Assembly: GCA_902625885.1 (NCBI GenBank)
Contig: CACODE010000007.1
Coordinates: 1-64,000, forward strand
DNA: 64,000 nt
Direction: 5' to 3'
From: an uncultured Candidatus Poseidoniales archaeon
Lineage (GTDB): Archaea > Thermoplasmatota > Poseidoniia > Poseidoniales > Poseidoniaceae
Part shown: in pieces, positions 16,768 to 49,337 of the stretch
Layout: each line of letters opens with the position of its first letter
Position numbering within the stretch: position 1 is the first letter of the stretch
Translations under genes and position numbers: made by a program
The notes under the pieces: model-generated
Told to the model about the DNA's origin: nothing
Databases searched by the model: none
Seen by the model: the letters and a program-made list of their open reading frames with translations, nothing else

Positions 16768-16789
16768 CTGGCACTGGAAAGTGATTCCA

Positions 16790-17085: not shown

Positions 17086-17307
17086 GTGACCGGCATATGC
17101 CCAAAGTGCAGCAGTAAAGACGTGAAAGAAAACCAACTCGGCGGCATGAACGCCATGTGGGCCGGCCGTATTTACCGGTGCGAAGATTGTGGCTTTTCGG
17201 AAATTTGGTCCACAAAACAACATCTCAGGCAACTACACGTTCTCTTGGGCTTAATCATCGTGTTACCCATGATCGTGATCGGCTTCATGATGTGGATGAC
17301 GGGTTGA
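17086..17307 (+). CDS. Small zinc-ribbon/transmembrane protein, copy 2
   Basis: MTGICPKCSSKDVKENQLGGMNAMWAGRIYRCEDCGFSEIWSTKQH; paralogue of 15775..16002. Confidence 0.7.
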   Translation: MTGICPKCSSKDVKENQLGGMNAMWAGRIYRCEDCGFSEIWSTKQHLRQLHVLLGLIIVLPMIVIGFMMWMTG

Positions 17308-17322
17308 CATTGATTGACGTCT

Positions 17323-28700: not shown

Positions 28701-29047
28701 CGATGTACTACGAGCATCTCAAGCACGACGGTACGCTGCCGATCATCGGCGTGAATACCTTCCAGAACCCCAACGCCGCCGCCTTCGACGAGTCGGCGGC
28801 GGACGACTTCGAGATGGAACTCGCTCGGGCGACGCCCGAGGAGAAGGAAGCCTGTTTAGAGCGGGTGATGCACCGCCAAACGGTGGAAGGCGAGGCCACG
28901 CAGGCGGCGCTTGCTCAACTGCAAGAGGTCGCACGACAGGGCGGGAACGTGTTCGAGGAACTGATGGAGACGGTGAAGGTCGCAAGCCTCGGTCAAATCA
29001 CGGATGCGCTGTTCAACGTTGGTGGGCAGTATCGGCGCAACATGTGA
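25703..29047 (+). CDS. Fused acyl-CoA mutase (IcmF-like: B12-binding + MeaB-type GTPase + mutase)
   Basis: B12-binding DGHDAAINVM, GTPase GFTGTGGAGKSSLLDEL, mutase substrate/B12 region SISGYHIAEAGANPITQLALTLANGFTYVEYY. Confidence 0.85.
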   Translation: MAEGEEEVVFTTSTGPVRVITAASLFDGHDAAINVMRRLIQSSGAEVIHLGHDQSAKAVVDCAVQEDAHAVALTSYQGGHVEYFTYIRQLLDEAGCEHVRIFGGGGGTITPPEIRTLHQSGISKIYSPDDGRAMGLMGMIHHLMGLASEVDLVGKERMASLDGPVTPEDMAKVGLLLTLSESADEKAFKAAVEACRSSDKDVPVIGFTGTGGAGKSSLLDELMLRIQRDNPGKKVCLLCVDPTRKRTGGALLGDRIRMNSLSNNDLYMRSLASRGSGSEISANLDRAIEVAKAVGFDLIFCETSGIGQGSDAITTVADHSLYVMTAEFGAHTQLEKIEMLDVADVVILNKYEKRGSEDALRAIRKQVRRNRNMFDVADEELPVVATIASQFADGGVDRLWQKVAAMVGFEASKPVDAMGERKGVIPPERIHYLSEIAANVRDYHAANAEVAEKLRLCQHLETAATNAEERSVKATAKDLRAQIGEIMEGMEEAKEALLSFRQLAEEYASGEYTYHVRGKPFKVQTTTESLAHSNIPRVALPKTKDDGELYEFITKENAPGHFPYTAGVFPFKRTDELSARMFAGEGEPERTNRRFHYLSQGQDYVRLSTAFDSVTLYGRDPARRPDIWGKVGNSGVSIATTDDAKRLYSGFDLCNANTSVSMTINGPAPIILAFFLNAAIDQQVEAHLAEQGKPAKLLDTAYRGELPEGHNGFGLATVGRRGDEMVDADTYGEIKARTLQTVRGTVQADILKEDQAQNTCIFSTPFALKLMGDVQQYYIDHGVRNHYSVSISGYHIAEAGANPITQLALTLANGFTYVEYYRSRGMDINKFAPNLSFFFSNGLDPEYTVIGRVARRIWAVTMRDMYGADERSQKLKYHIQTSGRSLHAQEIDFNDIRTTLQALLAIQDNANSLHTNAYDEAITTPTEESVRRALAIQLIVNKESGWTKTENPMQGAYIVDELTDLVEEAVLQEFEAISRRGGVLGAMETMYQRGKIQDESMYYEHLKHDGTLPIIGVNTFQNPNAAAFDESAADDFEMELARATPEEKEACLERVMHRQTVEGEATQAALAQLQEVARQGGNVFEELMETVKVASLGQITDALFNVGGQYRRNM
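28999..29047 (+). repeat. Direct repeat copy 1 (3' end of IcmF gene)
   Basis: cacggatgcgctgttcaacgttggtgggcagtatcggcgcaacatgtga; 4 mismatches in 49 to the copy at 30355..30403. Confidence 0.9.
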
Positions 29048-30450: not shown

Positions 30451-30936
30451 ATGAGCGGTGTGGCTGATTTCATTCGCAAGGAAGAAAATCACGAACGGCA
30501 ACTGGCTGAATTCATGCAATGGGAGTACGTCCTAAAGCAAGAAAAAGGCTCAGCTTACGACTTTGTGGCCAAGGACACCTCCAAGATTGAGGCCAAGTTC
30601 GACTGGGACTCCATCAAAACCGGCAATCACTACCTAGAATTCGCCCAAACCAGCGACAACAAAGCGACCTGGGTGCCATCAAGCTTCGCCCTCTCGGCAG
30701 ACGAAGCAGATTACTGGGTGGTGATCAACGAAGACTGGCTGCGCATGTACCGAATGGACCACCTGCAGGCCTTCATCAAAGAGAGCCGTTCTGGATTCAA
30801 GGTCAAAGAGACCCGCTCGGGCGTCAATCATAACCGAGAGGGCCAATATTCGAAGGCTTACCTCATTCCGTTCATCTATTTGGACGAGGTGTGTTTCATG
30901 AAAATTCCAAGCCCCGTCGCCAGAAATCCCTCATGA
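30451..30936 (+). CDS. Putative PD-(D/E)XK-like protein
   Basis: YDFVAKDTSKIEAKFDWDSIKTGNHYLEF ... SADEADYWVVI resembles phage-type PD-(D/E)XK nucleases. Confidence 0.5.
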   Translation: MSGVADFIRKEENHERQLAEFMQWEYVLKQEKGSAYDFVAKDTSKIEAKFDWDSIKTGNHYLEFAQTSDNKATWVPSSFALSADEADYWVVINEDWLRMYRMDHLQAFIKESRSGFKVKETRSGVNHNREGQYSKAYLIPFIYLDEVCFMKIPSPVARNPS

Positions 30937-30982: not shown

Positions 30983-32086
30983 ATGTCCAAATCCAAGGTC
31001 AAGAAACTCCCCAAAAAGGGGCCTCTTGCCTTTGATACCGTCTACCACGGCGATTCCCTTACAGGGATGCGCTTGGTCGAATCGGAAAGCATTGACCTGG
31101 TCATCACGTCGCCACCTTACGCCGACATGAAGGTCTACGAAGGAGGATTCGGTGGATTCCATCCCGACGAGTATGTGAAGTGGTTTCTTCCCTACGTCGC
31201 TGAAATCGGACGCATCCTCAAACCTACAGGGTCGTTTATCCTGAATATTAATGACAAATCCATCGATGGCTTCCGCCATCCGTTTATTTTTGAACTCATT
31301 TTTGCAATCCACAACGCCAAAGACTACTGTAAGCTCAAGGGCTTGGAAGAACTTGACATGCACGGTCTTCGGATGTTTGAGCGGCTCTTCTGGAACAAAG
31401 GCAAATTCCTCGCTCATCCAAGCCGGTTCGGCGACAAAGTGGAGTACTTGTTCTGGTTTTCCAAGACAAAAGAACGCAAATTCAACATTGACCCTATGCG
31501 CCTCAAGTACGACGAAAAGAGCGTTAAGCGCATGCAACGTCCGCTGCTCAAGCGATTTGTTCGGGAGAGCGGGGAAGAAGTCACCGAATACAAGCAAGGC
31601 GGCGAAGGCTCTTGGGCACCGAACGAATTGGGTGCGCTGCCATCGGTCCTCGTTGAGGAGGGAGCGATGCTCCATGTCAAACCTGTGGCTGAAAACCTTC
31701 CTGAGGGAACGGTGCTCATCGGAGAACGTATTGAGGACGCCATTGAAGTGGTGCATCCTCAAGTCGGCGACACGCCACATCCGAGTACCATCGTGACCAT
31801 TGGTTCAGAAACTCGGCGGATTGCGGGTAACCACGTCGCTGTCTATCCTGAACGTCTGGTGAACTATTTCATTCAAGGTGCAACCGATGAAGGCGATGTC
31901 GTGCTCGATCCGTTCATGGGTACAGGAACCACGGCGGTTGTGGCTCATGCGCTCGGCCGACGATATGTTGGTTTCGACATCAGTGCGGACTATGTCAAGA
32001 CGGCCAATCTTCGGATCGAAGCCGGCCCGTATCTTGATGAACTTAAGCAACGAAAAGATCGCCCTATCACTCTTTCAGATTTTTAA
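30983..32086 (+). CDS. Beta-class DNA methyltransferase (N4-cytosine or N6-adenine)
   Basis: Motif IV TSPPYADMK precedes motif I DPFMGTGTTAV. Confidence 0.85.
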   Translation: MSKSKVKKLPKKGPLAFDTVYHGDSLTGMRLVESESIDLVITSPPYADMKVYEGGFGGFHPDEYVKWFLPYVAEIGRILKPTGSFILNINDKSIDGFRHPFIFELIFAIHNAKDYCKLKGLEELDMHGLRMFERLFWNKGKFLAHPSRFGDKVEYLFWFSKTKERKFNIDPMRLKYDEKSVKRMQRPLLKRFVRESGEEVTEYKQGGEGSWAPNELGALPSVLVEEGAMLHVKPVAENLPEGTVLIGERIEDAIEVVHPQVGDTPHPSTIVTIGSETRRIAGNHVAVYPERLVNYFIQGATDEGDVVLDPFMGTGTTAVVAHALGRRYVGFDISADYVKTANLRIEAGPYLDELKQRKDRPITLSDF

Positions 32087-32612: not shown

Positions 32613-33755
32613 ATGGCTCCGACCCTGATTGACCTGTTCTCGGGTTGTGGAGGGCTCGGGCTTGGCTTCCACCAAGCCGGATTTTCCACAACATATGCCA
32701 ATGAGATTCACATTGACCCTGCAACAACCTACGTCAGAAACCTGCTTGATGATGAGAGCCACAGGATGCTGTTAGGGCCGATCGAACAGCAACTCTCAAA
32801 CAAAGCTATTGACATGAGAAGAAGCGAACTCAGGGACATCGACTGTATCAGTGGCGGCCCCCCTTGTCAGGGACTCTCGCTCGCAGGTGCAGGTAATCCT
32901 GACGATCCCAGAAACATGCTGTTCCGTGAATACCTACGTGTGGTCAAAAAAATCAAACCTCGTTCCATCGTTTTTGAAAATGTCCCAGGCTTTGTAAACC
33001 GATACGGACTTGGATTGAAATCAAGGCTTGAGGAAAAATTAGAAGATTATGGCTATCTCTTTGATTCTCATGTCATAAAAGCAGCCGATTACGGCGTGCC
33101 ACAAAACAGAGAACGATTCATCTTGATTGGCGTTCATGAAGACTGCGTGACGGATGAGGTCAAACTCCCAAAGCCGACCTGGACCCCATCAATAAGAAAC
33201 AAACATCTGAGAATATCTGACATCATTGACGATCTCAATTCCTACGAAACATGGGGAGGGTACGGGACGGGTGAGATTTGGGGTGAATCGACCTATACAA
33301 AGCCTGCTCGAAGTGATTTTGCAAAAACGATGAGAAGCGAAAGCAACAAGACCAACTCGACGTGGAACACAAAGATCCCGAAACACACCTCACGTGTCGC
33401 CGAACGGATGGGCCGTATTCTGGACGGAGAAGGACCGGAGGATTGGATTGGAACTCCACTTGAGACAAAAAAACACACTCAACGAGGGCTGGCAAAAGAC
33501 AAGTTTGAGAACATCACCATGGTTTCAACCCCAGATGATTTTGTCCACTACGATCGGAGTCTTCCTCGAACCCTTTCTGTTAGAGAATGCGCAAGGTTCC
33601 AAACATTTCCTGACCATTTCCATTTTCATGGAAGCAGAACAACAGGGGGGGAACGAAGGAAAACTGAGGTCCCACAGTACACACAAGTGGCCAACGCCAT
33701 TCCCCCACGCCTCGCTGAGGCACTGGCGCACCAAGTCCTTGGCCTTATTCAATGA
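32613..33755 (+). CDS. DNA (cytosine-5) methyltransferase
   Basis: DLFSGCGGLGLGF, GGPPCQGLS, FENVPGF, PQNRERFILIG. Confidence 0.9.
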   Translation: MAPTLIDLFSGCGGLGLGFHQAGFSTTYANEIHIDPATTYVRNLLDDESHRMLLGPIEQQLSNKAIDMRRSELRDIDCISGGPPCQGLSLAGAGNPDDPRNMLFREYLRVVKKIKPRSIVFENVPGFVNRYGLGLKSRLEEKLEDYGYLFDSHVIKAADYGVPQNRERFILIGVHEDCVTDEVKLPKPTWTPSIRNKHLRISDIIDDLNSYETWGGYGTGEIWGESTYTKPARSDFAKTMRSESNKTNSTWNTKIPKHTSRVAERMGRILDGEGPEDWIGTPLETKKHTQRGLAKDKFENITMVSTPDDFVHYDRSLPRTLSVRECARFQTFPDHFHFHGSRTTGGERRKTEVPQYTQVANAIPPRLAEALAHQVLGLIQ

Positions 33756-35682
33756 GGTTGACTCTGCAGTTCCTGGGAAACCGTCGTTCAATTGCGGTCA
33801 GCAACTGAGCGTTGCGTGCAGTGATTTGGAGCTGGGACCAATCAGCGACATCCAAATAGGGCGTGCCTGTGTTTACCATGCCTGCGCTGTTTTGAAGGAA
33901 TTGTTGTATCCGCTCCTGCTTTTCTGTGGTACTCATCTGCTTGATTTGAGTTCCATTCAGACTGAGGAGAAATAGATTCCCAATTTGCTGTGAAGCAATT
34001 GAATCCCCTCGTCGTTCAACTCCATAATCCCAAACTTGAGCTGCATTGACATCTCTATGGTTGTACACTGGAAGTAACGCACCTATTTTTCTTGAAGCGT
34101 TTGAGCCCTCACCACTGCCAATCGGGCCGTCAACAATGTTCTCAAGTGCGTAAAACATTGACACCATCTTTTTTGGATTCACATCGTTTGGATTCTTCAC
34201 CCTCTCAAAAATACCCACATTCTCCAGTGATTCGGGATTTTCGTCCAAAGTAGCGTATTCGTTCAACAATTCCTCACATAAATCATTCGTAAGACCTCTT
34301 TCCTTGACAAGATTTGCCTGGCGCGGAATTAAGGAATAGCATTTCTTGGTGAATTCTGGAAACTGAATAAAACTAGCGATTGTTCGAAAACACAAGCACT
34401 CAAAGCCCCTCAGGATAGCAAGTAGGTGTTCCTCTGTTTCGGTAGAATAGTCTGATTGCCCATGAGATACAAGCATAGAACAATACAGCATCCGATGTTG
34501 TGAAAATCCCATGTATCGTAATCGGAGGTTTTCCTCCAGTCCGAGCGATTCACAATAAGCCCAATTTCTCCGTTGGATACTCATGCTGGACCTGATATAC
34601 CGTTTGAAGTAATCAACAAACCCATAAATTTCTTCACCAGAGGATAGATTCTCGATGTGGTTTCTGATGTAAAACATTATCTCTGATTTTGAAACTCGTC
34701 GCCCCACAAAAACAGACATGATTTCTTGCATGATTTCGTTGATTAATTTGTTATTGTCTTCACTGCCAACTTTGACTTCATCAATATAGCGATCGAGCCA
34801 AGTCTCACAATTTTCAATTCTAGCCTGAAGATTTGTACCCAAATTTAGATTGAGGGTCATGTCGCGTGATATCAAAAAACCACGCATGACATCAAAACTG
34901 TTCAGCGGTGTGCCTCTGGTGTTTGCTGTGATGAACATTTCGTGTGCAACAACTGCTGAGGGAGCCAGAGTTAAGTTCACGACGACATTATCTCTGATTC
35001 CTTCATAAAACTCCACCAAACTACCTCTTGGAGACAAAGGCCCCTCAATTTGAAATTCTTGTTTAAGGGTGTGAACATAATGCATGGCTACACATTGCAA
35101 TTTACTGCCTCTGTATCTGATATCATCCATTCTAAATACCTCATATTGGACGTTTTCAGATTGAAAATTAAATTCAGAATCAAGTTGAATGTGGCCTGAA
35201 AAATTGGTTAGTAGATTCAGTATTTCGTTATCGGCACTTCTGGAGCTTTGTAGCCGATTTTGATTGTCGGTAGTCTTCAGGAACCTAGTCGCAATATCGG
35301 ACTTGATTTCATCCCAATTTGAACCATCATTCCCGTTGTCGAGAAGGTGGAAAATAGCTCCCATTAGCGCCGTATAGCTCGTCCAGCGTTGTTGGCCATC
35401 CATGAGTTGGAATGTATCCTCGTAGCCATGTTGATCTACATACACAATGATTGTGCCGCAGTAATACGGCATCTCCTCCCGAGAGGGAGATCGGTGATAG
35501 TTCAATAGATCTTTTAGCAGGATGTAGGCGGACCGATCTACTTCTGGTTTACTTTGGACACCAACACCCCACTGGTACCCTCTTTGGATTGGGGGTATGC
35601 TGAATTTCGCTAATTCTGGTGATTCGCCAAAAACGCTTGACGAAAACAGATCCCCAATAGATACAACTTCAGTACTAATCAT
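33745..35682 (-). CDS. DUF262 (GmrS-N/ParB-like) protein with DUF1524-like C-terminal region
   Basis: IPPIQRGYQW, QLMDGQQRWTSYTALMGAI, MRGFLISRD; C-terminal QIGNLFLLSLNGTQ. Start 35682 overlaps the helicase stop. Confidence 0.7.
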   Translation of the reverse strand: MISTEVVSIGDLFSSSVFGESPELAKFSIPPIQRGYQWGVGVQSKPEVDRSAYILLKDLLNYHRSPSREEMPYYCGTIIVYVDQHGYEDTFQLMDGQQRWTSYTALMGAIFHLLDNGNDGSNWDEIKSDIATRFLKTTDNQNRLQSSRSADNEILNLLTNFSGHIQLDSEFNFQSENVQYEVFRMDDIRYRGSKLQCVAMHYVHTLKQEFQIEGPLSPRGSLVEFYEGIRDNVVVNLTLAPSAVVAHEMFITANTRGTPLNSFDVMRGFLISRDMTLNLNLGTNLQARIENCETWLDRYIDEVKVGSEDNNKLINEIMQEIMSVFVGRRVSKSEIMFYIRNHIENLSSGEEIYGFVDYFKRYIRSSMSIQRRNWAYCESLGLEENLRLRYMGFSQHRMLYCSMLVSHGQSDYSTETEEHLLAILRGFECLCFRTIASFIQFPEFTKKCYSLIPRQANLVKERGLTNDLCEELLNEYATLDENPESLENVGIFERVKNPNDVNPKKMVSMFYALENIVDGPIGSGEGSNASRKIGALLPVYNHRDVNAAQVWDYGVERRGDSIASQQIGNLFLLSLNGTQIKQMSTTEKQERIQQFLQNSAGMVNTGTPYLDVADWSQLQITARNAQLLTAIERRFPRNCRVNLIE

Positions 35683-38536
35683 TGTTATTCCTCCAAAGCA
35701 CGATTGCATTTTCACGCCCAAATATGACCACGCGGGTACAAGCGAAACTATGTGCCTCTCCTTGATAGTTTAATTGTTCCCCGAGACTTATTGTTCCTAT
35801 CGTTTGACTACGCTCATCAGGTCCGTAGATGAGAACATCAAAACAACCTCTGTAACTTGTAGGATTGTCTAAACCATTGATATCTGACAAATCCATCAAT
35901 TCATAGGTGAATTCATCACGGTTCAGTTGCGTAGCAATGTGATCTGGCCTGATGTATTCCTCCCTTCCTGCTAACATGATTTTATGGACCTCAGTTCTGG
36001 TCATTTGTCGAAGCGGCAAATCTGTATGGTCCTCCCAACCTTGAGATCGGTTGAATTCTGTACTTGTCCACAAAAACCCTTCACCACCGTCCGTCCTGCA
36101 ATTTATGCACGGCATGACTCTCGTGTTGTCCTGTGCTAAATATTCACAAGAGGATTCCTCTATGAGGGCACCGATTGAATGAGCAAAGAGGGTTCTGATG
36201 CAATCTCCATTACGAACCCCTTCAATGAACTCGCCCAACTCATCTGCACCCCGTCGATACCTTGCGTGCAGTTCACGATGACCTGACTGCATGCAATCAA
36301 CCAAATCCTGCCAAGAATTGAGGCGATTATTGAAGCCTAACACGGCGTATTTCTGGGACGTGGTGTTCAATCGATAGTTTGTCGGCAGGTCGGAGAGAAT
36401 ACGCTTGACCTCATCATATCCCCCTTGACTGAGTGCATCAGTAAGGAAAAGGGGATCTTGTCCATTGATGGCCGTGGCAATTTCCCTCCGATGGATACCA
36501 AAAAAATGTGCATCGCCCGAACGCATGAGGCATGACAACACCCACATTCTGTTTTTGTACAGTTGCTGATATCGCTTCATATCGGCAAAGCGTTGAGTAA
36601 AATCTTCTCCAAAACCAGACTGAGCATCCCGCCAACTGGTGTAATCATCACTTGTGTCATCAACCTCGTCCAGTTCAACATTATCAACTCCCAAAAGCTC
36701 ATTTGGCCTCCAGGCTTTGGATTCTATGTTCCTCGTGATAGGGAGAAGGACGTATCCGTTTTCCAAAATTATAGTATCAGGGGAGAGGAAGAGATCGAAC
36801 AATCGCTCAAGTGATTTCCGCTCTCCGAGTTGTCGTCGGAAGTTTCGTGGCCTGGAATCATGAAGGAGACCAAAACAGGCACCGCTTCTGATGGCGCTCG
36901 CTTCGCCGTCCCAATGGCTCTTTCTCGCTGCCCTACCAAATCCCTGATACAATCCTTTCACGGTAAACGGCATGCCGAGGTAGCTGGTGATCCAGACATC
37001 GGGTTTGTCGATGCCCATTCCGAAGGCACTCGTGGCAACCATGCACGAAAATCGATTTTGAAGAAAGGATTCACGAACACGCTCGCGCTGACCTGGACTT
37101 GTGTCCCCTGTGTATGTCTTTACGTTTGTTTGACCAAACGATTCCTGAGCCAATTGTCTCATCTGGCCGTTGGCGATTGATTTGAGCGGCGTATACACGA
37201 TGACGGGGGGAAGAGAAAGCGCCGCTCCAAGTGTATTGAAATAATGGGTTGGTATGTTGTTCCACTCATTGTAAATGGTTTCCATCCCGTCATGATAATC
37301 ATAGACGTTCTGTTCATTCCGCTGCAAAAGTTCCACGTGAAAATAGAGGTCCGGTCGGGTTTTTGTTTCCTCAACGGGCAATGTTTGGTGCATTCCTTCT
37401 CCAAACAACAGCGTGAGCTCCTGTCGCTCATCTTGGGAAAGCGTGGCAGACATTAGAAGAATGCGGAGATCTGGGTTGGCACTCAGAAGGCGATGTTTGA
37501 CCCATTTCAGAAATTGAAAATCAGGTCGTATGGACGCCCCCCAATCGCCGACAACGTGGGCTTCATCCACCACGAGAAAGGATACTTTGTTGGCGATGGA
37601 ACATAAGTGATCTACCCACATGGTTCGGTTTGAGGGGCTTGCCATCAGCGTTTCTGGCGAGCAACACAGCATGTCAAGACGGTTGGTTTGTAGGTCAGTC
37701 ATGAGGTCCAATGGGTGGGTTTCTTCAACCGATGTAAGGAAGGCAGACCGCAAACCGATTGATTCGTGCAACCCAAGGTCGTTGGCCTCAAGGTCTTCGG
37801 AAAATTTCCTCCATTGATCGCGCTGATCGTCCATGAGGGAAATCAGGGGTGAAACCATCAAGGCCGGACCTTTTCCGCTTTTTCGAAGCGCCCAGGTAAT
37901 GGCTTGGGCGATGCGTGTTTTGCCAAATCCAGTTGGTAAGGCGGCGATTGTAAGAGATCCCGAAGTGGTCAATACTCTCAAAATGGCGTCTAGTTGTTGT
38001 TCTCTGAACCCTTCAGAGTTAGGAACGTTGCGTACATTGATATCTCGAGTCTGGAGGGCGCTTCTGAGTTCATCTAAGTGAGCTTGAAGTTGGTTCATAT
38101 CAAGGTCCTGGGCGTTTTGAGAAGCCACCGGCAATTGAGCGACCACGTTCGGAGTTTCAAAAGGGAAAGGGTCGCCAACAATCGGTGCGAGGACGAGAGG
38201 CTCATCGCTCTCAATGTCCCCCTCAGGGTGCAACCGGTACCAACGAAGACCAAATTCTGCTGCTCGTTGGTTCGCTGTGCGTAAACGATCGATGAGACGA
38301 TGAACCCCTATGTTCCAATCCTCAACAAGCAAATTCAGACGAGTTCGTTTTCGATCACGCAATTCCTGCAATAGTGCCCATTCGTCGTTCGCCTCCTCGA
38401 CACCGGTTGGAGTTAAACGCGGCCAGGGGTAAATTTGCCCGTCACCCGGCGTCCACCCGCTGTATCTGCAGTGCCGGCAAGAAATTCGGGTTTGAAGTTG
38501 GGTATTCTCCGTCATACATCCGTCATCGCAACGCAT
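35675..38536 (-). CDS. RecQ-like superfamily 2 helicase with N-terminal zinc finger (DpdF-like)
   Basis: CRHCRYSGW; LPTGFGKTRIAQAI, VDEAHVVGDWGASIRPDFQFL, SATLS, ATSAFGMGIDKPDVW, YQGFGRAARK. Confidence 0.75.
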   Translation of the reverse strand: MRCDDGCMTENTQLQTRISCRHCRYSGWTPGDGQIYPWPRLTPTGVEEANDEWALLQELRDRKRTRLNLLVEDWNIGVHRLIDRLRTANQRAAEFGLRWYRLHPEGDIESDEPLVLAPIVGDPFPFETPNVVAQLPVASQNAQDLDMNQLQAHLDELRSALQTRDINVRNVPNSEGFREQQLDAILRVLTTSGSLTIAALPTGFGKTRIAQAITWALRKSGKGPALMVSPLISLMDDQRDQWRKFSEDLEANDLGLHESIGLRSAFLTSVEETHPLDLMTDLQTNRLDMLCCSPETLMASPSNRTMWVDHLCSIANKVSFLVVDEAHVVGDWGASIRPDFQFLKWVKHRLLSANPDLRILLMSATLSQDERQELTLLFGEGMHQTLPVEETKTRPDLYFHVELLQRNEQNVYDYHDGMETIYNEWNNIPTHYFNTLGAALSLPPVIVYTPLKSIANGQMRQLAQESFGQTNVKTYTGDTSPGQRERVRESFLQNRFSCMVATSAFGMGIDKPDVWITSYLGMPFTVKGLYQGFGRAARKSHWDGEASAIRSGACFGLLHDSRPRNFRRQLGERKSLERLFDLFLSPDTIILENGYVLLPITRNIESKAWRPNELLGVDNVELDEVDDTSDDYTSWRDAQSGFGEDFTQRFADMKRYQQLYKNRMWVLSCLMRSGDAHFFGIHRREIATAINGQDPLFLTDALSQGGYDEVKRILSDLPTNYRLNTTSQKYAVLGFNNRLNSWQDLVDCMQSGHRELHARYRRGADELGEFIEGVRNGDCIRTLFAHSIGALIEESSCEYLAQDNTRVMPCINCRTDGGEGFLWTSTEFNRSQGWEDHTDLPLRQMTRTEVHKIMLAGREEYIRPDHIATQLNRDEFTYELMDLSDINGLDNPTSYRGCFDVLIYGPDERSQTIGTISLGEQLNYQGEAHSFACTRVVIFGRENAIVLWRNNND

Positions 38537-38538
38537 CT

Positions 38539-39033
38539 CTATACCTCACTCAACTTCCGATTTGAAATCAAATAGGTGGTATAGCGATTCAATTCTAGGC
38601 ACAAATCTGGACTGGTGGTCACCACGCCCCATTCCGCACTGTGAGCAATACCGTTTTTTGATAGATTGGCAGAACCGATATAGAGTTTCACATCGTCAAT
38701 CATGATGCCTTTGATGTGAAATAAATCTCCGTCATCTTCGTTCCAGTGCCATCCCGCAATATCAAATCGGTCCCGATACCGAGAGACCAATCGAGCAACG
38801 TTGGAATACTGATGAGAGTAGACTTTTACACTCACGCCCCGAGCGAGCGCTTGGTCAAGAGCGCCAGCAAGAAACCAATCCCTCGACCACGTGGGCAGCG
38901 AATAACTGAGTAGCGTAATGGAGGATTTAGCCGAGACAACCAAAGCGACGAGTGCTTCTTCAAGTCGGTACGAAGTGTGCTCGAAGGAACCCAAAGGATC
39001 CGTAAAGTGAACTGTCGTTCGTTCCAACTTCAT
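38539..39033 (-). CDS. PLD-superfamily protein (DrmC/DpdK-like)
   Basis: HIKGIMIDDVKLYIGSANLSKNGI single HxK motif; start MKLERTTVHF at 39033. Confidence 0.75.
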   Translation of the reverse strand: MKLERTTVHFTDPLGSFEHTSYRLEEALVALVVSAKSSITLLSYSLPTWSRDWFLAGALDQALARGVSVKVYSHQYSNVARLVSRYRDRFDIAGWHWNEDDGDLFHIKGIMIDDVKLYIGSANLSKNGIAHSAEWGVVTTSPDLCLELNRYTTYLISNRKLSEV

Positions 39034-39034
39034 A

Positions 39035-42000
39035 TCACCAGCTCCTATCAAGGAAGAGATTTCCGAGTTCGCAGGCTGTTTCAGGCAAATACAAACAGGC
39101 GTGGCATGCCGCACCGTTGCGTTCTGTTGGCGAAGGAGTGTGGTCTGCACAGACTGGGTCGTTTGAGCAATCGTCAAGACCGGCTAAAGCGCGCATACAA
39201 ATCACCTCGAGTTGTTCTGGCGTTGCCTGCCTCACGAGGCCTCCGAGGGTGCCATCCGAGCTTGGGCCAGACGTGTAAAGCAAGATGCCAGCGTATTCGA
39301 TGCTGCCGTCCTCTGTGTGGTTCAGATACAAACGTTCAGAGATCGACCCTGCTGAATAGCCAGAAACCAAACAAACTTCACGAATCAACAGGTGTGAGAG
39401 GCTATGCAAAACCGTGAGGGGGTTTCCTCCCTGATGGTTTGGAGATTCAACCGAGGGGAGTTGTTGAGAAACATTGTGCCGTAATCGTTCCATGCTCGGA
39501 ATCATACCTGCATGTTCTGGATTCAGCCTCTCCGCCCTTTGATTGGTGATCGCCGATAACCACATTGACTTGACTTCAAAGTAGATCCCCTCCCCGTGAT
39601 GGAGACGGGCAATACCGAACTTGTCGCCTTCGCGTAGGTCAATGGGTTGTTCCAACCCTTCCGAGGGGTCCAGACGTGTGATTCCCGAGATGTATCGCAG
39701 CTCAGTTAACCGGTCAACTCGAATAACTTGAGAAACTGGAGAGGCCACTGAGGCCCAATATGGAGATTCGTCCGCCAGTGACACAACACCACGAGCGGAA
39801 AATTCTGTCGGATCATATGTGGAAGCTCGGTCCGGGTTGAGAAGACCAATACGTTCCCTGCGGCGAAGATTTGCTAGGGTCAATACTTGGTCGGCGGGTT
39901 GGCCTGAGTGATGTGAAAGGTACTGTGTGCAGGCGTCATGGAGAAGATCGTTGTTGATTTCCCCATTTTCGACAAACTCGGTCTCGTTTAACAAGGAAAC
40001 CAATTCGTCATGTCGTGTTCCGACGACTCGATCAAACACTTCTCGATCCAGACCAGCTTCTAAGAGTCCGAGAATGCCCCAATCTCGCAACTTTTTGGCG
40101 TATCTCCACGATACGTGAAGCGGTATCAACAAAACAGATCCCCCGTTGTTGAACGTAACATTGGTTGAGCCGACTTGCCGGTGCATCAATCCGAGGTTGC
40201 ACTCTTCTCGATGTTGCGGATCAACCGTCAGCCAAGGTCGGAAACCACCGCAGCTGGGTCCGTTTTCAGCCGTGATTGTCGGGGCGAGTTCCATGCTTCT
40301 ACGCGCCCCGCACCCTCTGCAAACCACGGTCCAATCCCTCAAGGTATGTGCCGCATCAGCGCCCATCTCAAGGTCAATATCTGCTGATTCTTGACAAGAT
40401 TCCCAACGACCGTCTGGTTGATGCACCCATTTCCAGTAGTCAAACGGGTGGAGATGACCATTGGAGCAAATACTGACGAATCCAGTTGGGTGAGCCAAAG
40501 CATCACAGCCCGCTCTTTGGCATTGTATCTGGCCACCGGGGCCTGGTCTGATCCAACTTGAGAGATGGCCGTTTGAACAACGGTATCCGTATTTCCCCGG
40601 GTATCGATCGATGGTCACGGCCCCGTGACGCTGATCGGTCGGCAGGAATCGTAGAATCGTGTTTGGTGGCAAGATATCCTGAAGGGTTTCACGTTCAATT
40701 CTCAATCCGCCTTCGCCTGTGGGACGATACGCAAGATTCCCCTGCCCGTTGGTCCAGTTGTTCACGCCCAAGGTCAGATAGCTCAATCCATCTTTTTCCC
40801 AAATGTTTCCTGGTGCTGCCTGCGCCATGACATGGTTGGTTGGCATGGTCATCACCCTCTCTTCATTCTGGACGTTCCACTTTTCCACCACACGAACTTC
40901 TGGAGCAACATCCCTAAAGGATTGGAGCGGTACATCGGCATTTGTAAATTCACCTATCTCGCTACGGAGCCATCCTCTTTGTTGCTGGTTTGCTTCGTTT
41001 CTTCTGGAGACCCAAATGGCCCGAAGATTATCACGCTGACAATCTTCAACAAAGCGGCTCAGATTTGAGAACTTACGACTGATGGTTTCCAGAGCTTGAA
41101 TAACCGTGTCCGGAGGTGATCGAACGTGGATGTGTTCCTCTCTCCCTTCAACCGTTGATTTGAATGCTTCAACCAACCTTATGGCGTTGGCCCTCAAGTC
41201 AGCAGATTGACCAAGATTTCTGAGGTCGTATGTCTGAGCGAGACTATCAAACCGCATTCGAAGCATGATGGCCAGCGCCGTCCCCATCCCTCTGTCAAGC
41301 GCACGTTGGGAAAAGGGCGTGGTGGAGGTTAAATCTACGTGGCTGTAGACCTCCTGATGGAAAGCTCTGAAATTTTCATAATGAGATTGATCCCGAGGAA
41401 ATGTAGACCTCAAGAGCGACACAACCAATCCAGGAAATCTTCGTCCGACTCTTCCGCTGGATTGAATGTATTCTGAGTTACTCTTTGGTTGTCCGACAAT
41501 CGCCATGAGGCCAAGTCGACCGATATCAATCCCAACTTGGAACATGTTGGTTGTCACTACTACATCAACAACTTCTTCTGGTAGACTTCGTTCAAGGGAA
41601 TCCTTGACGGCCTTCAGTTCAGATGAGGTTTTTCGGCTTGTTAGTTCTTTAATGGTGTGAAGTTGCCTCGGGTTCTCGAGGCCACCTTGCTGAGCATATT
41701 GAGGCATGAATTGACGTGCCACTCGGTCAGGAAGTGCTGTTTGCGCACCGCCAAGTTCTCGCAGGCTGTTGAAATATCCAACCATCGTGAAGTAAGGATC
41801 GAAAATTACGTCCGGTTCCTCAGGATTCCCGTCCCTCAATTGTTGAGCACGTTGCAACAACGATGCCGTGGGTTGAGCAAAGGTCGTACGATTCTTGCCG
41901 GGAGGGCCTAAAATTCCGATGTGTTTTCTACCAGCATCGTCATCTCCACTAAGTTGAGCGAAGAAATTATCTTCCGCTGTTGCTACGGGCGGAGGGAAGA

Positions 42001-44146
42001 TGTTCATGTCTCTTCCATACATGAGCATTGCATCACGCTGCGCTCCTCTAATGGTCGCCGTAGCAGCAATGTACTTCGGTCGGTGGCCGAGATCCTCCCA
42101 TGCCGTCTCCAAAGCAGTTTCTACCAATCCAGCGATGGTTCCGAGGGGACCCGTTAACAAGTGCAATTCGTCTTGAATGATGAGGTCTGGAGGACGCACC
42201 GCATCGCGGCCAAAGCCCAGCATTCTTCGGGCGTTAAATTGCTGAGCTGCGTCGGAATCTGCTGCTGCACCGCCAGGCAAGCTTTTCGCCCAAGGATTCC
42301 TTGCGAGCTGTGCAAATTTATCCGCAGTCGCCAAAAGAACCGAGGGCGGATTGATGTAGATATCGTCATCAACGCAAGTAAACGGAACACCATCATGAAA
42401 CAGACATGCTTCGTCCTGACATCTCCCTATCAATGCTGGTTGATTGTTTAAATCTCCGATTTCCCAAGAACTTGCTTCTCCAAGGGATTGACTCCCACAC
42501 CACGGGCATCGTTCAAACTGAATCACCGTTCCTTTTTCTTCTGCTTGATTTGTTTGAAGTAAGGCGAGGTTTTGTTCAGCAGTTGGAGTCGAATATGTGG
42601 TATCATAGCGCAATAACCGGTTGGGGCTGGCATCTTCACCGACCCACATGCCGACTCTGAAATCAGTGAAGTTATGGTCGGGTTCTTCCCCTCTTGCGAT
42701 GTGATTCATAGCACCAACAAGACGCACCAGCCGACCTGCCTGATCGGAAGTCAAGAGACGCAGGGTATAGCGCATGATGGAATGGACCGCAGGGAGGCGG
42801 CTTTCATCCTCAGGAAAGCGGAGTCGGCGATAAAATCCGACTGTTGCAATCATCCCGAGATATGCTTCAGTTTTGCCCCCGCCCGTTGGAAACCATGCAA
42901 GGTCGATGATGCTTCGCTCATGGAATCCAACGTCGGATTCATCAAATGCACACAAACTCCGGATGTTGATGAGTTGGAACGCTAGTTGGAACGGTCGCCA
43001 TTGAAAGTCGGTCCTGTCACTTACATCCGGATGTGTGGCTTCGTTTTGTGAGAATTGGATGGAACGATTGGCGAGTAAAAAGGCATGCCTTGCCATATCA
43101 TCGGAGAGGAGAAACCGAATTCCTTCTTGCATTCGAACACTGTTTAATCTCGCAGCGTCAACCATTTCTCTGACTGTCGCCGACAAAGTTTCAGGAAGCA
43201 AACCTTGGTCAAATCTAGTATTGAGAAGATGCTCCTGCTGGCTTAACCACTCATCATATGCCCCAACAAACTCATGTAGAGATTCCAGCGAAGCTGAGAT
43301 TGTGTCCGAATCACACAGTCCGTTCATGTCCGGCAAAAGGGTTTGTAGCGACTCATTTTCCTCCATCTTGTTCATGGTGTATTCCGGAAGGTAATCGGTC
43401 CAAATGTTGCCATCATCGTCCCAATTCACACCAACATTGTGCCCGAGTGCGAAAACATCAGAATCGGCATAGAGAACCATCATGGTCTGGTCTTGTCGAA
43501 CCGGATCAACAGCATTTCGAACATCTTGCCAAACAGGACCCATAGAGAACCGCATTTCCGGTTGGAAAATGATGTATGTTGACTTGCTCTGTGCCTTGGG
43601 AACCATCATGATGTTCTGCATCCGAATGGAAAGCGTTGGGTGGTCCTCAGAACCCTTTCGTAGGTGTAAAAGAATTTGCCCATCGATGTTGATGGGGTCC
43701 GCATAAGCGTCGAACATCATTGTGCCGTAATCTATGATAAGTTCGTGGTGGTGTGGAATTCGCAACCATCCGTCTTCGGTTTTTTGGTACCTTGCCCATT
43801 TCAATTGAAGAGATAGTTCCTCTATCCCGCTGGATGGACAGACGGTGAAGCCCATTGAAGACGGGAGCATGAATTTCTCCTCATCAGATGACACCGGTCG
43901 GTCCTCGGATTCGTCAAACGAGGTTGTGATGTCTGCGTCATGGTCCGATGGAAGTATCGGTGATGATGAAACACCTTGCTCGTCTGAATTAGGGTTGAGT
44001 TTACCAATCAGGTAGACACCATCTGGTGAACCCTCAACCTGAAGACATTCGTTTGTTTGGGGCTGCCCTTCCTCGTCAATCTGTGGACCCAGAACATCCG
44101 CACGCAGGAATCGGATCAGAGCGTCGCGAACATCGTTGTGCTGCAT
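39035..44146 (-). CDS. DrmA-DrmB fusion: SF2 helicase + DUF1998-type C-terminal region
   Basis: N-half: LAWFPTGGGKTEAYLG, LIIQDELHLLTGPLGTIAGLVE, ATATIRGAQRD, SSGRVGR. C-half: CSNGHLSSW, SICSNGHLHPFDYWKW, AGILLYTSGPSSDGTLGGLV, CSNDPVCADH, GAACHACLYLPETACELGN. Confidence 0.8.
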   Translation of the reverse strand: MQHNDVRDALIRFLRADVLGPQIDEEGQPQTNECLQVEGSPDGVYLIGKLNPNSDEQGVSSSPILPSDHDADITTSFDESEDRPVSSDEEKFMLPSSMGFTVCPSSGIEELSLQLKWARYQKTEDGWLRIPHHHELIIDYGTMMFDAYADPINIDGQILLHLRKGSEDHPTLSIRMQNIMMVPKAQSKSTYIIFQPEMRFSMGPVWQDVRNAVDPVRQDQTMMVLYADSDVFALGHNVGVNWDDDGNIWTDYLPEYTMNKMEENESLQTLLPDMNGLCDSDTISASLESLHEFVGAYDEWLSQQEHLLNTRFDQGLLPETLSATVREMVDAARLNSVRMQEGIRFLLSDDMARHAFLLANRSIQFSQNEATHPDVSDRTDFQWRPFQLAFQLINIRSLCAFDESDVGFHERSIIDLAWFPTGGGKTEAYLGMIATVGFYRRLRFPEDESRLPAVHSIMRYTLRLLTSDQAGRLVRLVGAMNHIARGEEPDHNFTDFRVGMWVGEDASPNRLLRYDTTYSTPTAEQNLALLQTNQAEEKGTVIQFERCPWCGSQSLGEASSWEIGDLNNQPALIGRCQDEACLFHDGVPFTCVDDDIYINPPSVLLATADKFAQLARNPWAKSLPGGAAADSDAAQQFNARRMLGFGRDAVRPPDLIIQDELHLLTGPLGTIAGLVETALETAWEDLGHRPKYIAATATIRGAQRDAMLMYGRDMNIFPPPVATAEDNFFAQLSGDDDAGRKHIGILGPPGKNRTTFAQPTASLLQRAQQLRDGNPEEPDVIFDPYFTMVGYFNSLRELGGAQTALPDRVARQFMPQYAQQGGLENPRQLHTIKELTSRKTSSELKAVKDSLERSLPEEVVDVVVTTNMFQVGIDIGRLGLMAIVGQPKSNSEYIQSSGRVGRRFPGLVVSLLRSTFPRDQSHYENFRAFHQEVYSHVDLTSTTPFSQRALDRGMGTALAIMLRMRFDSLAQTYDLRNLGQSADLRANAIRLVEAFKSTVEGREEHIHVRSPPDTVIQALETISRKFSNLSRFVEDCQRDNLRAIWVSRRNEANQQQRGWLRSEIGEFTNADVPLQSFRDVAPEVRVVEKWNVQNEERVMTMPTNHVMAQAAPGNIWEKDGLSYLTLGVNNWTNGQGNLAYRPTGEGGLRIERETLQDILPPNTILRFLPTDQRHGAVTIDRYPGKYGYRCSNGHLSSWIRPGPGGQIQCQRAGCDALAHPTGFVSICSNGHLHPFDYWKWVHQPDGRWESCQESADIDLEMGADAAHTLRDWTVVCRGCGARRSMELAPTITAENGPSCGGFRPWLTVDPQHREECNLGLMHRQVGSTNVTFNNGGSVLLIPLHVSWRYAKKLRDWGILGLLEAGLDREVFDRVVGTRHDELVSLLNETEFVENGEINNDLLHDACTQYLSHHSGQPADQVLTLANLRRRERIGLLNPDRASTYDPTEFSARGVVSLADESPYWASVASPVSQVIRVDRLTELRYISGITRLDPSEGLEQPIDLREGDKFGIARLHHGEGIYFEVKSMWLSAITNQRAERLNPEHAGMIPSMERLRHNVSQQLPSVESPNHQGGNPLTVLHSLSHLLIREVCLVSGYSAGSISERLYLNHTEDGSIEYAGILLYTSGPSSDGTLGGLVRQATPEQLEVICMRALAGLDDCSNDPVCADHTPSPTERNGAACHACLYLPETACELGNLFLDRSW

Positions 44147-44762: not shown

Positions 44763-46361
44763 ATGTCTGTCCAGATTACCTGTCTTAGGTCAACCATCAA
44801 AAAAAACGGAAAGACATTCCCTGTTCTTATTGGGATGGCATCAGGTCGGCAAATTCATTCCTTCTCATTTGTTCCAAACTTTAGCCCAAGCGATTCAAAT
44901 CTGGTCATCGCTCAACGCCTTTTGGAGCCTCTTGAGGACAAGTGGCAACGACCAGCAGACCAGAAAAGAATTTCCAACATCGGAGAATTGTACACGCAAA
45001 ATTCTTCTCTTCAGGTCATGGTCAATCCTGTCTTGTTAGGGGCAATTCCCGGACTGGAATCAAACATCACCATACTCAATTCCACAACGGCAACTGGATC
45101 TGGGAATCAGCCAGAAATTGTTCAGATTGAGATTAAATCTGGGAGTTCCGTTTGGGTCATTGATGGTCAACACCGCATCAACGGAATGCGGGGATCTAGT
45201 CAACCCATGCCGTTCGTTCTCCTCTACGACGAGACACCGAAATCAAACTACACGGGAGCCTACCTTGCAGAATTGTTTTCCATCGTCACAACAGAAGCGA
45301 AGCCTATGAAAACCATCCACAAAGAATGGATGATGTACGCGTTCAATTTGGCACATTACAAAAAAGAATACAAACGGGAACTCATGAAAATAGCACTCCA
45401 ACTTGCTACATCACCTGTATTCAATTCTTCAAATTCAGACCAAAATTTGTTTTACGGAGAGATTCAATTCAACGACGGTCTTGAGGTGAATGGAAACAAA
45501 GTAGGCGCGTTCAGTTTCACCGCCCAAACGCTCCTGAAATCTCTTGATATTCATCCAACCAAAACGCTTCTTCAACAATATACAACCGAGCAGATTGCGG
45601 CTGCGATCTCAGATTTCCTCTCGGGTATGAAGGAATTGCATGGCCCTCCAAAAACAACAAGTCTGTTGTTTGGAAAGCATGGAAAAGCACGCTACACATG
45701 TATTGGAGCAGGATTGGTTGAAGCGTGGTTGTGGTATCTCTCGACGTGTGGCTCACTACCAGATTTTTCTGAAACAATGGATTTGCTCCGAACGATCGGA
45801 GTTGGAAACACGAATTGGGAACTGCTGACATGGCCGTCTGGCCCAGGTACGGTTGAAAAGAACGCCATGAGACAAACCATTCGAACGGTATTTTACCAAC
45901 TCATGACCAAAAAAATTCCTGTCCCTGACGACCTTGGTGGATTTTTGCTGGGTAAGGAAAATACCGTTTTCCGACTTGAATTTGGCGTTCAGAAAAACGG
46001 CAAATTCGTTGAACAATCGGCTAAATCGGTTGAAATTAATCCATTCAAACAGCAAGAATTGCAATTCGTGGTGCCTAAATACAACGGGCAACCCAGAAAC
46101 GCCGTCCGCCACTACTATTTACGATCAAAAAATCCCAACGACTTATCCGGGCACTCACCAAATTGTCGAATGAAGACCTGTGTACTATCCAACCGACTTG
46201 GACAGCCGTTGATGCCACCTGACGAATGTCGTAATGCCTTCAGGAGGATGAACATGGGCTTGGACTTCGGTGTGGGAAGATTCGCTTACCTCAGATTAGA
46301 GGTTGTTTCACTTAACGAGAAAAAACCACATGACCTCACCATCGCATTGAGTCATGAGTAA
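44763..46361 (+). CDS. DGQHR-domain protein (DndB/DpdB-like)
   Basis: SVWVIDGQHRINGMRG, FVLLYDE. Confidence 0.75.
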   Translation: MSVQITCLRSTIKKNGKTFPVLIGMASGRQIHSFSFVPNFSPSDSNLVIAQRLLEPLEDKWQRPADQKRISNIGELYTQNSSLQVMVNPVLLGAIPGLESNITILNSTTATGSGNQPEIVQIEIKSGSSVWVIDGQHRINGMRGSSQPMPFVLLYDETPKSNYTGAYLAELFSIVTTEAKPMKTIHKEWMMYAFNLAHYKKEYKRELMKIALQLATSPVFNSSNSDQNLFYGEIQFNDGLEVNGNKVGAFSFTAQTLLKSLDIHPTKTLLQQYTTEQIAAAISDFLSGMKELHGPPKTTSLLFGKHGKARYTCIGAGLVEAWLWYLSTCGSLPDFSETMDLLRTIGVGNTNWELLTWPSGPGTVEKNAMRQTIRTVFYQLMTKKIPVPDDLGGFLLGKENTVFRLEFGVQKNGKFVEQSAKSVEINPFKQQELQFVVPKYNGQPRNAVRHYYLRSKNPNDLSGHSPNCRMKTCVLSNRLGQPLMPPDECRNAFRRMNMGLDFGVGRFAYLRLEVVSLNEKKPHDLTIALSHE

Positions 46362-46381: not shown

Positions 46382-47683
46382 TCACTCACGAGCGAGGTTG
46401 CCTTCTTGAGCGATGTTGAACAGCTTTGAAAGGACATGTCGGGCCATGAGTGGCGGAACTGCATTACCTATGAGTGTGTGCAAATCGGTTCTTTTCTTTA
46501 TCATCCTCATGTTAAAGAAATCAGGAAATGTTTGGACGCGTGCTGCCTCGTGGGGTGAAAGCACTCTTGCTTCCAAAGGATGAGTAAATCGGCCTCGACC
46601 ATTACAACCAAAACCCGTGGTGAGGGTTGGTGCGGGTTCTTCCCATCGCATTCGGCCATATACCGCAGGGTAGGTGTGATCTCCTTGCTGACATTTTGGT
46701 CGGAGATGGTTTGGTAAATCGTAGCGCTCGCCCTCAAAGCCATCTTCAAAGAACCAATCCATCCTATCTTGGTTCACCTTCGTTGCGCGGGGTGTTTTGT
46801 AGAATATCGAGTCTGATGTCATGGCCTTATGTTGTAAGTCTTCAATCACCCATCCCACGGACCTTGGTTCGGAAACAGTGGGTGCTGAGATGGCCTTGAA
46901 ATCAATATGAACATCATCACTTTTAACGGCTACAGTGAAGTGGCGAGCTCGTGTTTGAGGAATGCCGACATGCTGTCCTTTCACTACGCCATGGTCAACA
47001 ACATAACCCCAATCTTTGAGGATGGCATTGGCTCTCGGCACCACTTTTTGTTTCGCATTTACAACGCCTCGAACATTTTCAATTAACACATACTTCGGCT
47101 TAAAAATTTCAACAAATCTAATCATCCTCATGTAGAGTTCGTTTCTGGGGTCTGTTCCCCTGGTATGATTGTTGAGATTGGAATTGCCTTGGCAAGGGGG
47201 GCCCCCAACAACAATGTCAACCTCACCAAGCATGGACTTGAGGTCCTCCTCCTCTATGGTCAATTTATGTCCAATCTCTCCGTTAACGCTGTCCTCAATA
47301 GGTTGGTCAAGAAAGTAGGTTGGTGCGAAATTTGCAACATAGGATTCCTTTGCGGCTGGAAATAAATCACAGGCCATGACCATTTCAAGGTTGATGCCAA
47401 TGTTCCGACATGCTTCCCAAAGACCGGCTGAAATTCCACCGCACCCCGAAAACAAATCCACACCCTTCATGGTGGCATCGGGTTGTTCCAGACTCGGCCA
47501 TTCCTCTTGCTGCAACCATTCCAAGTCTGCCCGTCTCGTTAGTGATTCATAGAGCTCTTTGTGTGAGTCAACGGTTATGTTGATATTTTTCCCATTCTTG
47601 AGAGTGAGCGTACTCCCATCTGGCCCATGATAGACCATTTCCTCAACCTCATCTATGGTAATTTTACTCGTCAATCCACTCAC
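46382..47683 (-). CDS. DNA (cytosine-5) methyltransferase
   Basis: VDLFSGCGGISAGL, GGPPCQGNSNLN, IENVRGV, PQTRARHFTVAV. Confidence 0.9.
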   Translation of the reverse strand: MSGLTSKITIDEVEEMVYHGPDGSTLTLKNGKNINITVDSHKELYESLTRRADLEWLQQEEWPSLEQPDATMKGVDLFSGCGGISAGLWEACRNIGINLEMVMACDLFPAAKESYVANFAPTYFLDQPIEDSVNGEIGHKLTIEEEDLKSMLGEVDIVVGGPPCQGNSNLNNHTRGTDPRNELYMRMIRFVEIFKPKYVLIENVRGVVNAKQKVVPRANAILKDWGYVVDHGVVKGQHVGIPQTRARHFTVAVKSDDVHIDFKAISAPTVSEPRSVGWVIEDLQHKAMTSDSIFYKTPRATKVNQDRMDWFFEDGFEGERYDLPNHLRPKCQQGDHTYPAVYGRMRWEEPAPTLTTGFGCNGRGRFTHPLEARVLSPHEAARVQTFPDFFNMRMIKKRTDLHTLIGNAVPPLMARHVLSKLFNIAQEGNLARE

Positions 47684-47785
47684 CCGCCGTGTATCTATGC
47701 TTTAGCAAGGCTGATTGGGAGTCGACCGTTCATAATCTATGTGTTTGCTGAAGCAAGAAAACTTGACCGACGATTTATTGTAGAC

Positions 47786-49327: not shown

Positions 49328-49337
49328 GGTCTTTCCC

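What the first reader, a model, noticed from the sequence alone, without database searches (positions are those of the whole stretch)
33745..44146. DISARM/Dpd-like four-gene operon built around a single-chain DrmA-DrmB fusion
The sequence shows four minus-strand genes that abut or overlap: 39035..44146, 38539..39033, 35675..38536, 33745..35682. The 1703-aa first protein has DrmA-type helicase motifs (WFPTGGGKTEAYLG, QDELHLLTGPLG, SSGRVGR) in its first two thirds and DrmB/DUF1998-type motifs (CSNGHL, YTSGPSSDGTLGGLV, CSNDPVCADH, GAACHACLYLPETACELGN) at the C-terminus. From established knowledge, DISARM uses separate DrmA, DrmB and a PLD protein DrmC, with methyltransferases and either DrmD or DrmE. 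Here A and B are fused, DrmC follows, no DrmD/DrmE was recognised, and a RecQ-like helicase and a DUF262 protein follow instead. That this is one functional anti-phage system is inference.
Basis: partly seen in the sequence, partly recalled or inferred. Interest (0 to 1): 0.85.

Follow-up and report, generated by a model that had tools for sequence, protein, structure and literature searches.

The report
DISARM-like archaeal operon with single-chain DrmAB
A low-GC defence island in an archaeon carries a four-gene relative of the DISARM antiviral system in which the two core proteins are fused into one chain and sit with an unusual helicase and NTPase; the same four genes recur in a second genus, so this looks like a real, previously undescribed DISARM subtype.

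Summary
Window 39035..44146(-) is one 1703-aa chain: DrmA (aa 6-1086) joined to DrmB (aa 1208-1702 by profile, start near aa 1105). A 164-aa PLD nuclease, a RecQ/DpdF-like helicase and a DUF262 (GmrS-type) protein follow, spaced -8 to +2 nt. DrmD, DrmE and an in-operon methyltransferase are absent.

The strongest new evidence: a second genome, G475 (same family, another genus), has the same four genes in the same order at 45, 27, 35 and 26% identity, so neither fusion nor operon is an assembly artefact.

Of 107 DrmA+DrmB loci surveyed (window included), 104 are split; only the window and G288 are truly fused. By phylogeny the helicase is DISARM's DrmA (100/100), not Dpd's DpdJ.

The fusion joins DrmA's pivot arm directly to DrmB's N-terminus, parts that already interlock in the Serratia structure. 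The base-sensing Val (V1080), helicase motifs, Zn cysteines and PLD HKD are kept. The DUF262 protein lacks the HNH catalytic (E/D)H in both genomes. No C5 methyltransferase was found in G475 (63% complete).

Verdict: a new DISARM subtype. Antiviral function and mechanism are inferred, untested.

The parts
39035..44146 (-). Single-chain DrmA-DrmB (1703 aa): SF2/YprA-type helicase with acidic trigger-loop region (about aa 53-93), pivot arm (about aa 1080-1103, base-sensor V1080) and DrmB OB/CON/DUF1998 module (about aa 1105-1703)
   Evidence: NF038325, NF038324, PADLOC DrmA/DrmB, PDB 7s9v; junction alignments; AlphaFold of aa 1001-1703 matches 7s9v_B E=1e-25; full-length homologue in G475
38539..39033 (-). 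Short PLD-family nuclease (164 aa), DrmC-like core without the N-terminal ~90 aa (4-helix-bundle region)
   Evidence: PF13091 5.1e-13; NF038319 matched only at profile 93-232/236; HKD motif intact; G475 counterpart of 166 aa
35675..38536 (-). RecQ/DpdF-like SF2 helicase (953 aa) with N-terminal CxxC (aa 20) and C-terminal CxxC (aa 810)
   Evidence: PF00270/PF00271; NF041063 DpdF 171 bits, core only; 34.5% identity over 912 aligned residues to the G475 gene, both CxxC pairs kept
33745..35682 (-). DUF262/GmrS-type protein (645 aa): DGQQR NTP-binding motif intact, HNH (E/D)H of GmrD absent
   Evidence: PF03235 9.2e-20; weak GmrSD_C E=0.055; motif scan of window and G475 proteins; motifs defined in PMC4619093
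32613..33755 (+). C5-cytosine methyltransferase, convergent with the operon (11-bp overlap); possible but unproven protective methylase
   Evidence: PF00145 9.7e-64; closest in the collected loci is the C5 MTase just upstream of DrmA in Nitrosarchaeum L094, 36% identity; no C5 MTase found in G475 or G073
44763..46361 (+). DGQHR/DndB-like protein, divergent from the operon; neighbour, membership not shown
   Evidence: TIGR03187 9.6e-8, under its cut-off; no counterpart seen beside the G475 operon

Best explanation
This is an anti-virus operon of the DISARM family and a new subtype of it: single-chain DrmAB, short DrmC-like PLD nuclease, RecQ/DpdF-like helicase, DUF262 NTPase. Proposed mechanism: (1) DrmAB rests autoinhibited, with an acidic trigger loop over the DNA path; (2) 5'-ssDNA ends of incoming or replicating viral DNA displace the loop, and V1080 touches a base; (3) the pivot arm, here covalently continuous with the DrmB OB fold, closes the DrmB clamp and starts ATP-driven translocation; (4) the RecQ-like helicase opens more ssDNA and the PLD nuclease cuts; (5) the DUF262 protein, keeping its NTP-binding motif but lacking the HNH catalytic residues, gates or senses rather than cuts. 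Shown: gene content, fusion, conservation in two genera, conserved motifs, DISARM phylogeny. Inferred by homology: steps 1-3. Inferred only: steps 4-5 and antiviral function itself. Identity as a DISARM-family operon is about 0.85 likely; the detailed mechanism about 0.45.
For: DrmA and DrmB profiles and PDB matches on one chain. DISARM clade support 100/100 against DpdJ and YprA. Same four genes, order and strand in G475 at 26-45% identity. Motifs GGGKTEA, QDELH, ATATI, SSGRVGR, SFRDV, CSNDPVC..ACHxC present in both fused proteins. V1080 aligns with L067 V1303, the equivalent of Serratia V1296; V1296 and the pivot arm are functionally essential in PMC9142583. Predicted fold of aa 1001-1703 is DrmB (E=1e-25, TM 0.71 normalised by 7s9v_B). 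PLD HKD intact; HNH absent in both DUF262 proteins. Defence-island setting: 30.4-50.9 kb has GC 0.40-0.52 by gene against mostly 0.55-0.61 around, with methyltransferases and McrBC beside it.
Against: No DrmD or DrmE and no methyltransferase inside the operon. No C5 MTase detected in G475 at all, whereas DISARM is defined with one. The RecQ-like and DUF262 proteins were not found in other sampled genomes of the phylum and their roles rest on domain names. The trigger loop is judged by position and charge only. No experiment exists.
Confidence: 0.6

Rival explanations
1. It is ordinary DISARM: the adjacent convergent C5 methyltransferase (32613..33755) is its DrmMII, the fusion is incidental, and RecQ and DUF262 are unrelated island genes that happen to sit downstream.
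For: C5 MTase lies directly beside the operon and is most like a DrmA-adjacent C5 MTase in Nitrosarchaeum. G288 has a fusion with other neighbours, and G073 has DrmA/B with no RecQ-like gene detected.
Against: RecQ-like and DUF262 genes follow in the same order at 8-10 nt spacing in G475, at only 26-35% identity, which implies long joint retention. No C5 MTase was found in G475 or G073.
Confidence: 0.2
2. It is a Dpd-type system: single-chain helicase-DUF1998 (DpdJ), short PLD (DpdK), RecQ-like DpdF and a DGQHR protein, guarding a 7-deazaguanine-modified genome.
For: DpdF profile matches the helicase (171 bits); the PLD matches DpdK (blastp 4e-6); DpdJ is single-chain and DpdK lacks the 4HB (PMC12458937); a DGQHR/DndB-like gene is divergent upstream.
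Against: The tree puts the helicase in DISARM, outside DpdJ, at 100/100; direct match to DpdJ is only about 34 bits. No other Dpd protein was identified in the scanned island genes. DpdF similarity is confined to the helicase core.
Confidence: 0.06
3. It is a housekeeping DNA-repair helicase cluster (MrfA/YprA type), not a defence system.
For: DrmA/B belong to the wider YprA superfamily that includes MrfA (PMC12458937; 6znp hit).
Against: Phylogeny places it in the DISARM clade. Patchy presence: 4 of 174 genomes of the family have any DrmA/B match. It sits in a low-GC island with restriction genes.
Confidence: 0.05

Closest known systems
DISARM (Class 1 and Class 2)
   Same: Homologous DrmA, DrmB and DrmC-like PLD in the same gene order; trigger-loop position, pivot-arm Val and DUF1998 cysteines conserved
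   Different: DrmA and DrmB fused; PLD lacks the N-terminal 4-helix-bundle region; no DrmD, DrmE or in-operon methyltransferase; RecQ/DpdF-like helicase and DUF262 protein instead
Dpd
   Same: Single-chain helicase-DUF1998 protein, short PLD, RecQ-like helicase core related to DpdF
   Different: Helicase is phylogenetically DISARM, not DpdJ; DUF1998 cysteines retained; no 7-deazaguanine modification genes or other Dpd proteins seen
GmrSD / SspE / HEC-06 DUF262 proteins
   Same: N-terminal DUF262 with QRxYxW and DGQQR motifs; full-length weak match to PADLOC HEC-06
   Different: HNH (E/D)H catalytic pair missing in both window and G475 proteins; encoded inside a DISARM-like operon
Thermoplasmatota-level DISARM-like loci found here (L157, L158, L159, L160)
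   Same: DrmA/B, short PLD (156-164 aa in L157 and L158); L159 also fused (1666 aa)
   Different: Third protein of L157, L159 and L160 is an unrelated 805-1008 aa protein with no family match; no RecQ-like or DUF262 gene

Membership tests
DISARM | DrmA-type helicase of the DISARM clade | tested here: met
   NF038325 734 bits (under the 950 equivalog cut-off); tree clade 100/100
DISARM | DrmB (OB-CON-DUF1998) protein | tested here: met
   NF038324 282 bits over cut-off 240; fold match to 7s9v_B; present as a fused domain
DISARM | DrmA and DrmB on separate genes | tested here: not met
   One 1703-aa ORF; 104 of 107 loci are split; G475 also fused
DISARM | DrmC PLD nuclease | tested here: met
   PF13091, PADLOC DrmC 46 bits, HKD intact; under the NF038319 cut-off and lacking the N-terminal ~90 aa
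DISARM | Methyltransferase (DrmMI/DrmMII) in the system | tested here: inconclusive
   None in the operon; convergent C5 MTase adjacent; no C5 MTase found in G475, assembly 63% complete
DISARM | DrmD (Class 1) or DrmE (Class 2) | tested here: not met
   No match in the operon or flanking genes scanned
DISARM | Protection against phage | not testable with these tools
   Needs an experiment
Dpd | DpdJ-clade helicase | tested here: not met
   Tree; NF041067 DpdJ 16 bits
Dpd | DpdF helicase | tested here: inconclusive
   DpdF 171 bits against cut-off 550, helicase core only
Dpd | DpdA transglycosylase and 7-deazaguanine genes in the locus | tested here: not met
   None among the island genes scanned; the rest of the genome was not searched for them
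GmrSD | DUF262 with DGQQR | tested here: met
   PF03235; motif at aa 95
GmrSD | HNH (E/D)H nuclease site in GmrD | tested here: not met
   No [ILV][ED]H[ILV]xP in window or G475 protein; only a weak GmrSD_C tail match

The most novel reading that the evidence does not exclude
The window/G475/G073 lineage is the earliest-branching DISARM and keeps the ancestral single-chain YprA architecture from before DrmA and DrmB separated. It defends without a dedicated methyltransferase, telling self from non-self by DNA ends alone. The data do not reject all other DISARM as one clade with this lineage outside (AU p = 0.84), and no C5 MTase was found in G475.
Probability: 0.2. Interest if true: 0.8.

Novelty: new variant of a known kind. 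Interest (0 to 1): 0.6.

Why it matters
DISARM's need for methylation, and the role of the DrmA-DrmB interface, are open mechanistic questions. A natural single-chain DrmAB is a ready-made construct for testing whether the pivot arm and OB fold must be separable. An operon that apparently keeps no methyltransferase would test whether methylation is needed for self-recognition. It also links DISARM to a RecQ/DpdF-type helicase and an apparently nuclease-dead DUF262 NTPase. The short PLDs in split loci L157 and L158 qualify the proposal (PMC12458937) that the DrmC 4-helix bundle is tied to the A/B split.

Tried and rejected
L096 (Sphaerospermopsis) looked like a third fusion but is a run of masked N between DrmA and DrmB: rejected. 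AlphaFold of the DUF262 protein with two rows failed (pLDDT 32) and is not used. Adding DrmA C-terminal fragments to the DrmB alignment misaligned them, so they were dropped. Scans of viral contigs with DrmAB found only non-fused DISARM-type loci (judged) or nothing; with the helicase only RecQ-core matches or nothing. No DrmAB relative among phage records. In the plasmid rows listed, A and B were annotated as separate genes where annotated. A mixture-model tree did not finish; the simpler LG+G4 model was used. Whether the fusion is ancestral or secondary in the window's lineage is unresolved: a FastTree run nested it among split loci, but the AU test does not reject a basal place. A shared single origin with G288's fusion has 0% of bootstrap trees but is not formally rejected (AU p = 0.117).
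Full report
WHAT IS THERE. The four minus-strand genes are at the coordinates given. The first is a single 1703-aa frame. Its first part is DrmA: NCBIfam NF038325 covers aa 6-1086 (734 bits, 2.9e-220). Its last part is DrmB: NF038324 covers aa 1208-1702 (282 bits, over the curated cut-off of 240). PADLOC agrees, and the solved Serratia DrmAB structure 7s9v is the best PDB match for both halves. The second gene is a 164-aa PLD-family protein with an intact HKD motif. The third is an SF2 helicase with a RecQ/DpdF-type core (DpdF 171 bits, RecQ 119 bits). The fourth is a DUF262 protein. Gaps are +1, +2 and -8 nt, so co-transcription is likely (inference).

IS THE FUSION REAL? Yes. In G475, a genome of the same family but another genus, a 1793-aa protein aligns from aa 4 to 1703, 44.9% identical over 1670 residues and across the junction. 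At 45% identity a shared assembly error is not plausible.

IS THE OPERON CONSERVED? In G475 (locus L184) the fused DrmAB (12845-18226), PLD (166 aa), helicase (1015 aa) and DUF262 protein (638 aa) follow in the same order and strand, 1, 10 and 8 nt apart. Identities over aligned residues are 27.2% (PLD), 34.5% (helicase, over 912 residues, far beyond the helicase core) and 25.9% (DUF262). Two further genes (564 aa; 2057 aa with AAA domains) follow in G475. In the 194 relatives and in 394 genomes drawn from the phylum no other match to the helicase (E<=1e-20 and E<=1e-15) or to the DUF262 protein (E<=1e-5) appeared; G475 was not listed among those samples' matches and came in only with the family-wide search. 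The system is therefore rare in what is held.

HOW UNUSUAL IS THE FUSION? I collected DrmA+DrmB loci from plasmids, species genomes, viral contigs and the archaeal phylum. Of 107 assessable loci, window included, 104 encode A and B separately, all adjacent on one strand with a median overlap of a few bases. Three scored as fused: the window, G288 (L159, 1666 aa) and L096, but L096 is a masked-N artefact. G475 adds one more. In the IQ-TREE phylogeny (43 rows, 993 columns) window, G475 and G073 form a 100/100 clade inside a 100/100 DISARM clade that excludes DpdJ and YprA; G288's fusion lies with split loci of the same archaeal phylum, and 0% of bootstrap trees give a single origin of fusion. 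The branching order at the base of DISARM is unresolved: the window lineage as sister to all other DISARM is not rejected (AU p = 0.84), and a common origin of the fusions is not formally rejected either (p = 0.117).

HOW IT MOST LIKELY WORKS. [quoted passage not shown] V1296 touches a base, and the C-terminal pivot arm of DrmA wraps the DrmB N-terminus and supplies a strand to its OB fold in trans. Using L067 (Citrobacter), which aligns end to end with the Serratia protein, V1296 corresponds to L067 V1303 and to window V1080 in SFRDV; G475 has the same SFRDV. The trigger-loop position is occupied in the window by about aa 53-93; the 44-residue stretch examined holds 12 acidic and 2 basic residues. 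The DrmB N-terminal motif follows V1080 after about 25-30 residues, so the pivot arm runs straight into DrmB: the trans strand exchange would become a cis one (inference). AlphaFold of aa 1001-1703 predicts a strand at about aa 1083-1088 and a DrmB fold (mean pLDDT 74.5; 7s9v_B E=1e-25, TM 0.71). Strand pairing itself was not examined. DISARM-type activation is thus supported by homology. The helicase (motifs intact, CxxC pairs near both ends in both genomes) probably opens more ssDNA, and the PLD cuts. The DUF262 protein keeps QRxYxW and DGQQR, but lacks the (E/D)H of the GmrD nuclease motif defined in PMC4619093 in both genomes, so I propose a gating or sensing NTPase. These last roles are inference.

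METHYLATION. A C5 methyltransferase is convergent with the operon (32613..33755) and its nearest relative in the collected loci sits just upstream of DrmA in Nitrosarchaeum. But no C5 MTase was found anywhere in G475 or G073 (G475 is 63% complete) and none among the G475 neighbours scanned. A methyltransferase is therefore not shown to be part of the conserved unit; other methylase families were not searched genome-wide.

SETTING. The island from about 30.4 to 50.9 kb has GC 0.40-0.52 by gene against 0.55-0.61 in most surrounding genes. It also holds an N6/N4 MTase with a possible partner nuclease, a DGQHR/DndB-like gene, and a second C5 MTase with McrB and McrC. The host is archaeal (fibrillarin gene); a Poseidoniales-like (marine group II) identity is a guess from genome size and kin structure.

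COMPARISON. DISARM features met: DrmA, DrmB, DrmC-like PLD. Not met: separate A and B genes, DrmD/DrmE. Inconclusive: methyltransferase. Dpd is rejected on phylogeny. Bell et al. [quoted passage not shown] that paper's main text does not mention RecQ, DUF262 or GmrSD, and searches of the held library found no description of this gene set. Bell et al. may contain such loci in supplementary tables that I could not read.

VERDICT. A new variant of a known kind: a DISARM subtype with single-chain DrmAB, conserved in at least two genera of one archaeal family, probably antiviral, mechanism as DISARM with unproven helper roles.

Noticed in passing
L159:6753-11753 (G288): A second, apparently independent DrmA-DrmB fusion (1666 aa) in another genome of the same archaeal phylum, followed by an 805-aa protein with no family match and a C5 methyltransferase-like gene.
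   Followed up: partly
L157:12659-15625, L160:5081-8107, L159:11759-14176: A family of 805-1008 aa proteins with an N-terminal CPxC-type motif directly downstream of DrmB or short DrmC in archaeal DISARM-like loci; no match in NCBIfam or PADLOC and, for L157 and L159, none above cut-off in Pfam.
   Followed up: partly
L157:12192-12662 and L158:12232-12726: Short PLD proteins (156 and 164 aa, no 4-helix-bundle region) occur with split DrmA/DrmB, so short DrmC is not confined to fused systems.
   Followed up: yes
window 30451-30936 and 30983-32086 (+): A 161-aa protein with a PD-(D/E)xK-looking stretch (matches PHROG 13596 of unknown function) next to an N6/N4 DNA methyltransferase: probable type II restriction-modification pair.
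   Followed up: partly
window 46382-50858: C5 methyltransferase divergent from McrB (AAA_5) and McrC genes: McrBC/LlaJI-like restriction module.
   Followed up: no
window 25703-29047 (+): B12-binding, MeaB GTPase and methylmalonyl-CoA mutase domains in one 1114-aa chain (IcmF-like fusion).
   Followed up: no
L184:18301-19899 and L185:1-822 (G475): The gene directly upstream of the G475 DrmAB has a weak Cas10/Cmr2 palm match (E=0.0075, under cut-off).
   Followed up: no
L186 (G506:C7): DrmB end at a contig edge, 162-aa PLD, 1013-aa SNF2-type (DrmD/DpdE-like) helicase, 391-aa and 1302-aa proteins, and a C5 MTase a few kb further on: another DISARM-like variant in the same archaeal family.
   Followed up: partly
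L094:8811-20303 (Nitrosarchaeum): C5 MTase, DrmA, DrmB, 250-aa DrmC and a 1406-aa helicase: archaeal DISARM-like locus; a similar arrangement with a 1304-aa last gene occurs in Chloroflexota L105.
   Followed up: no
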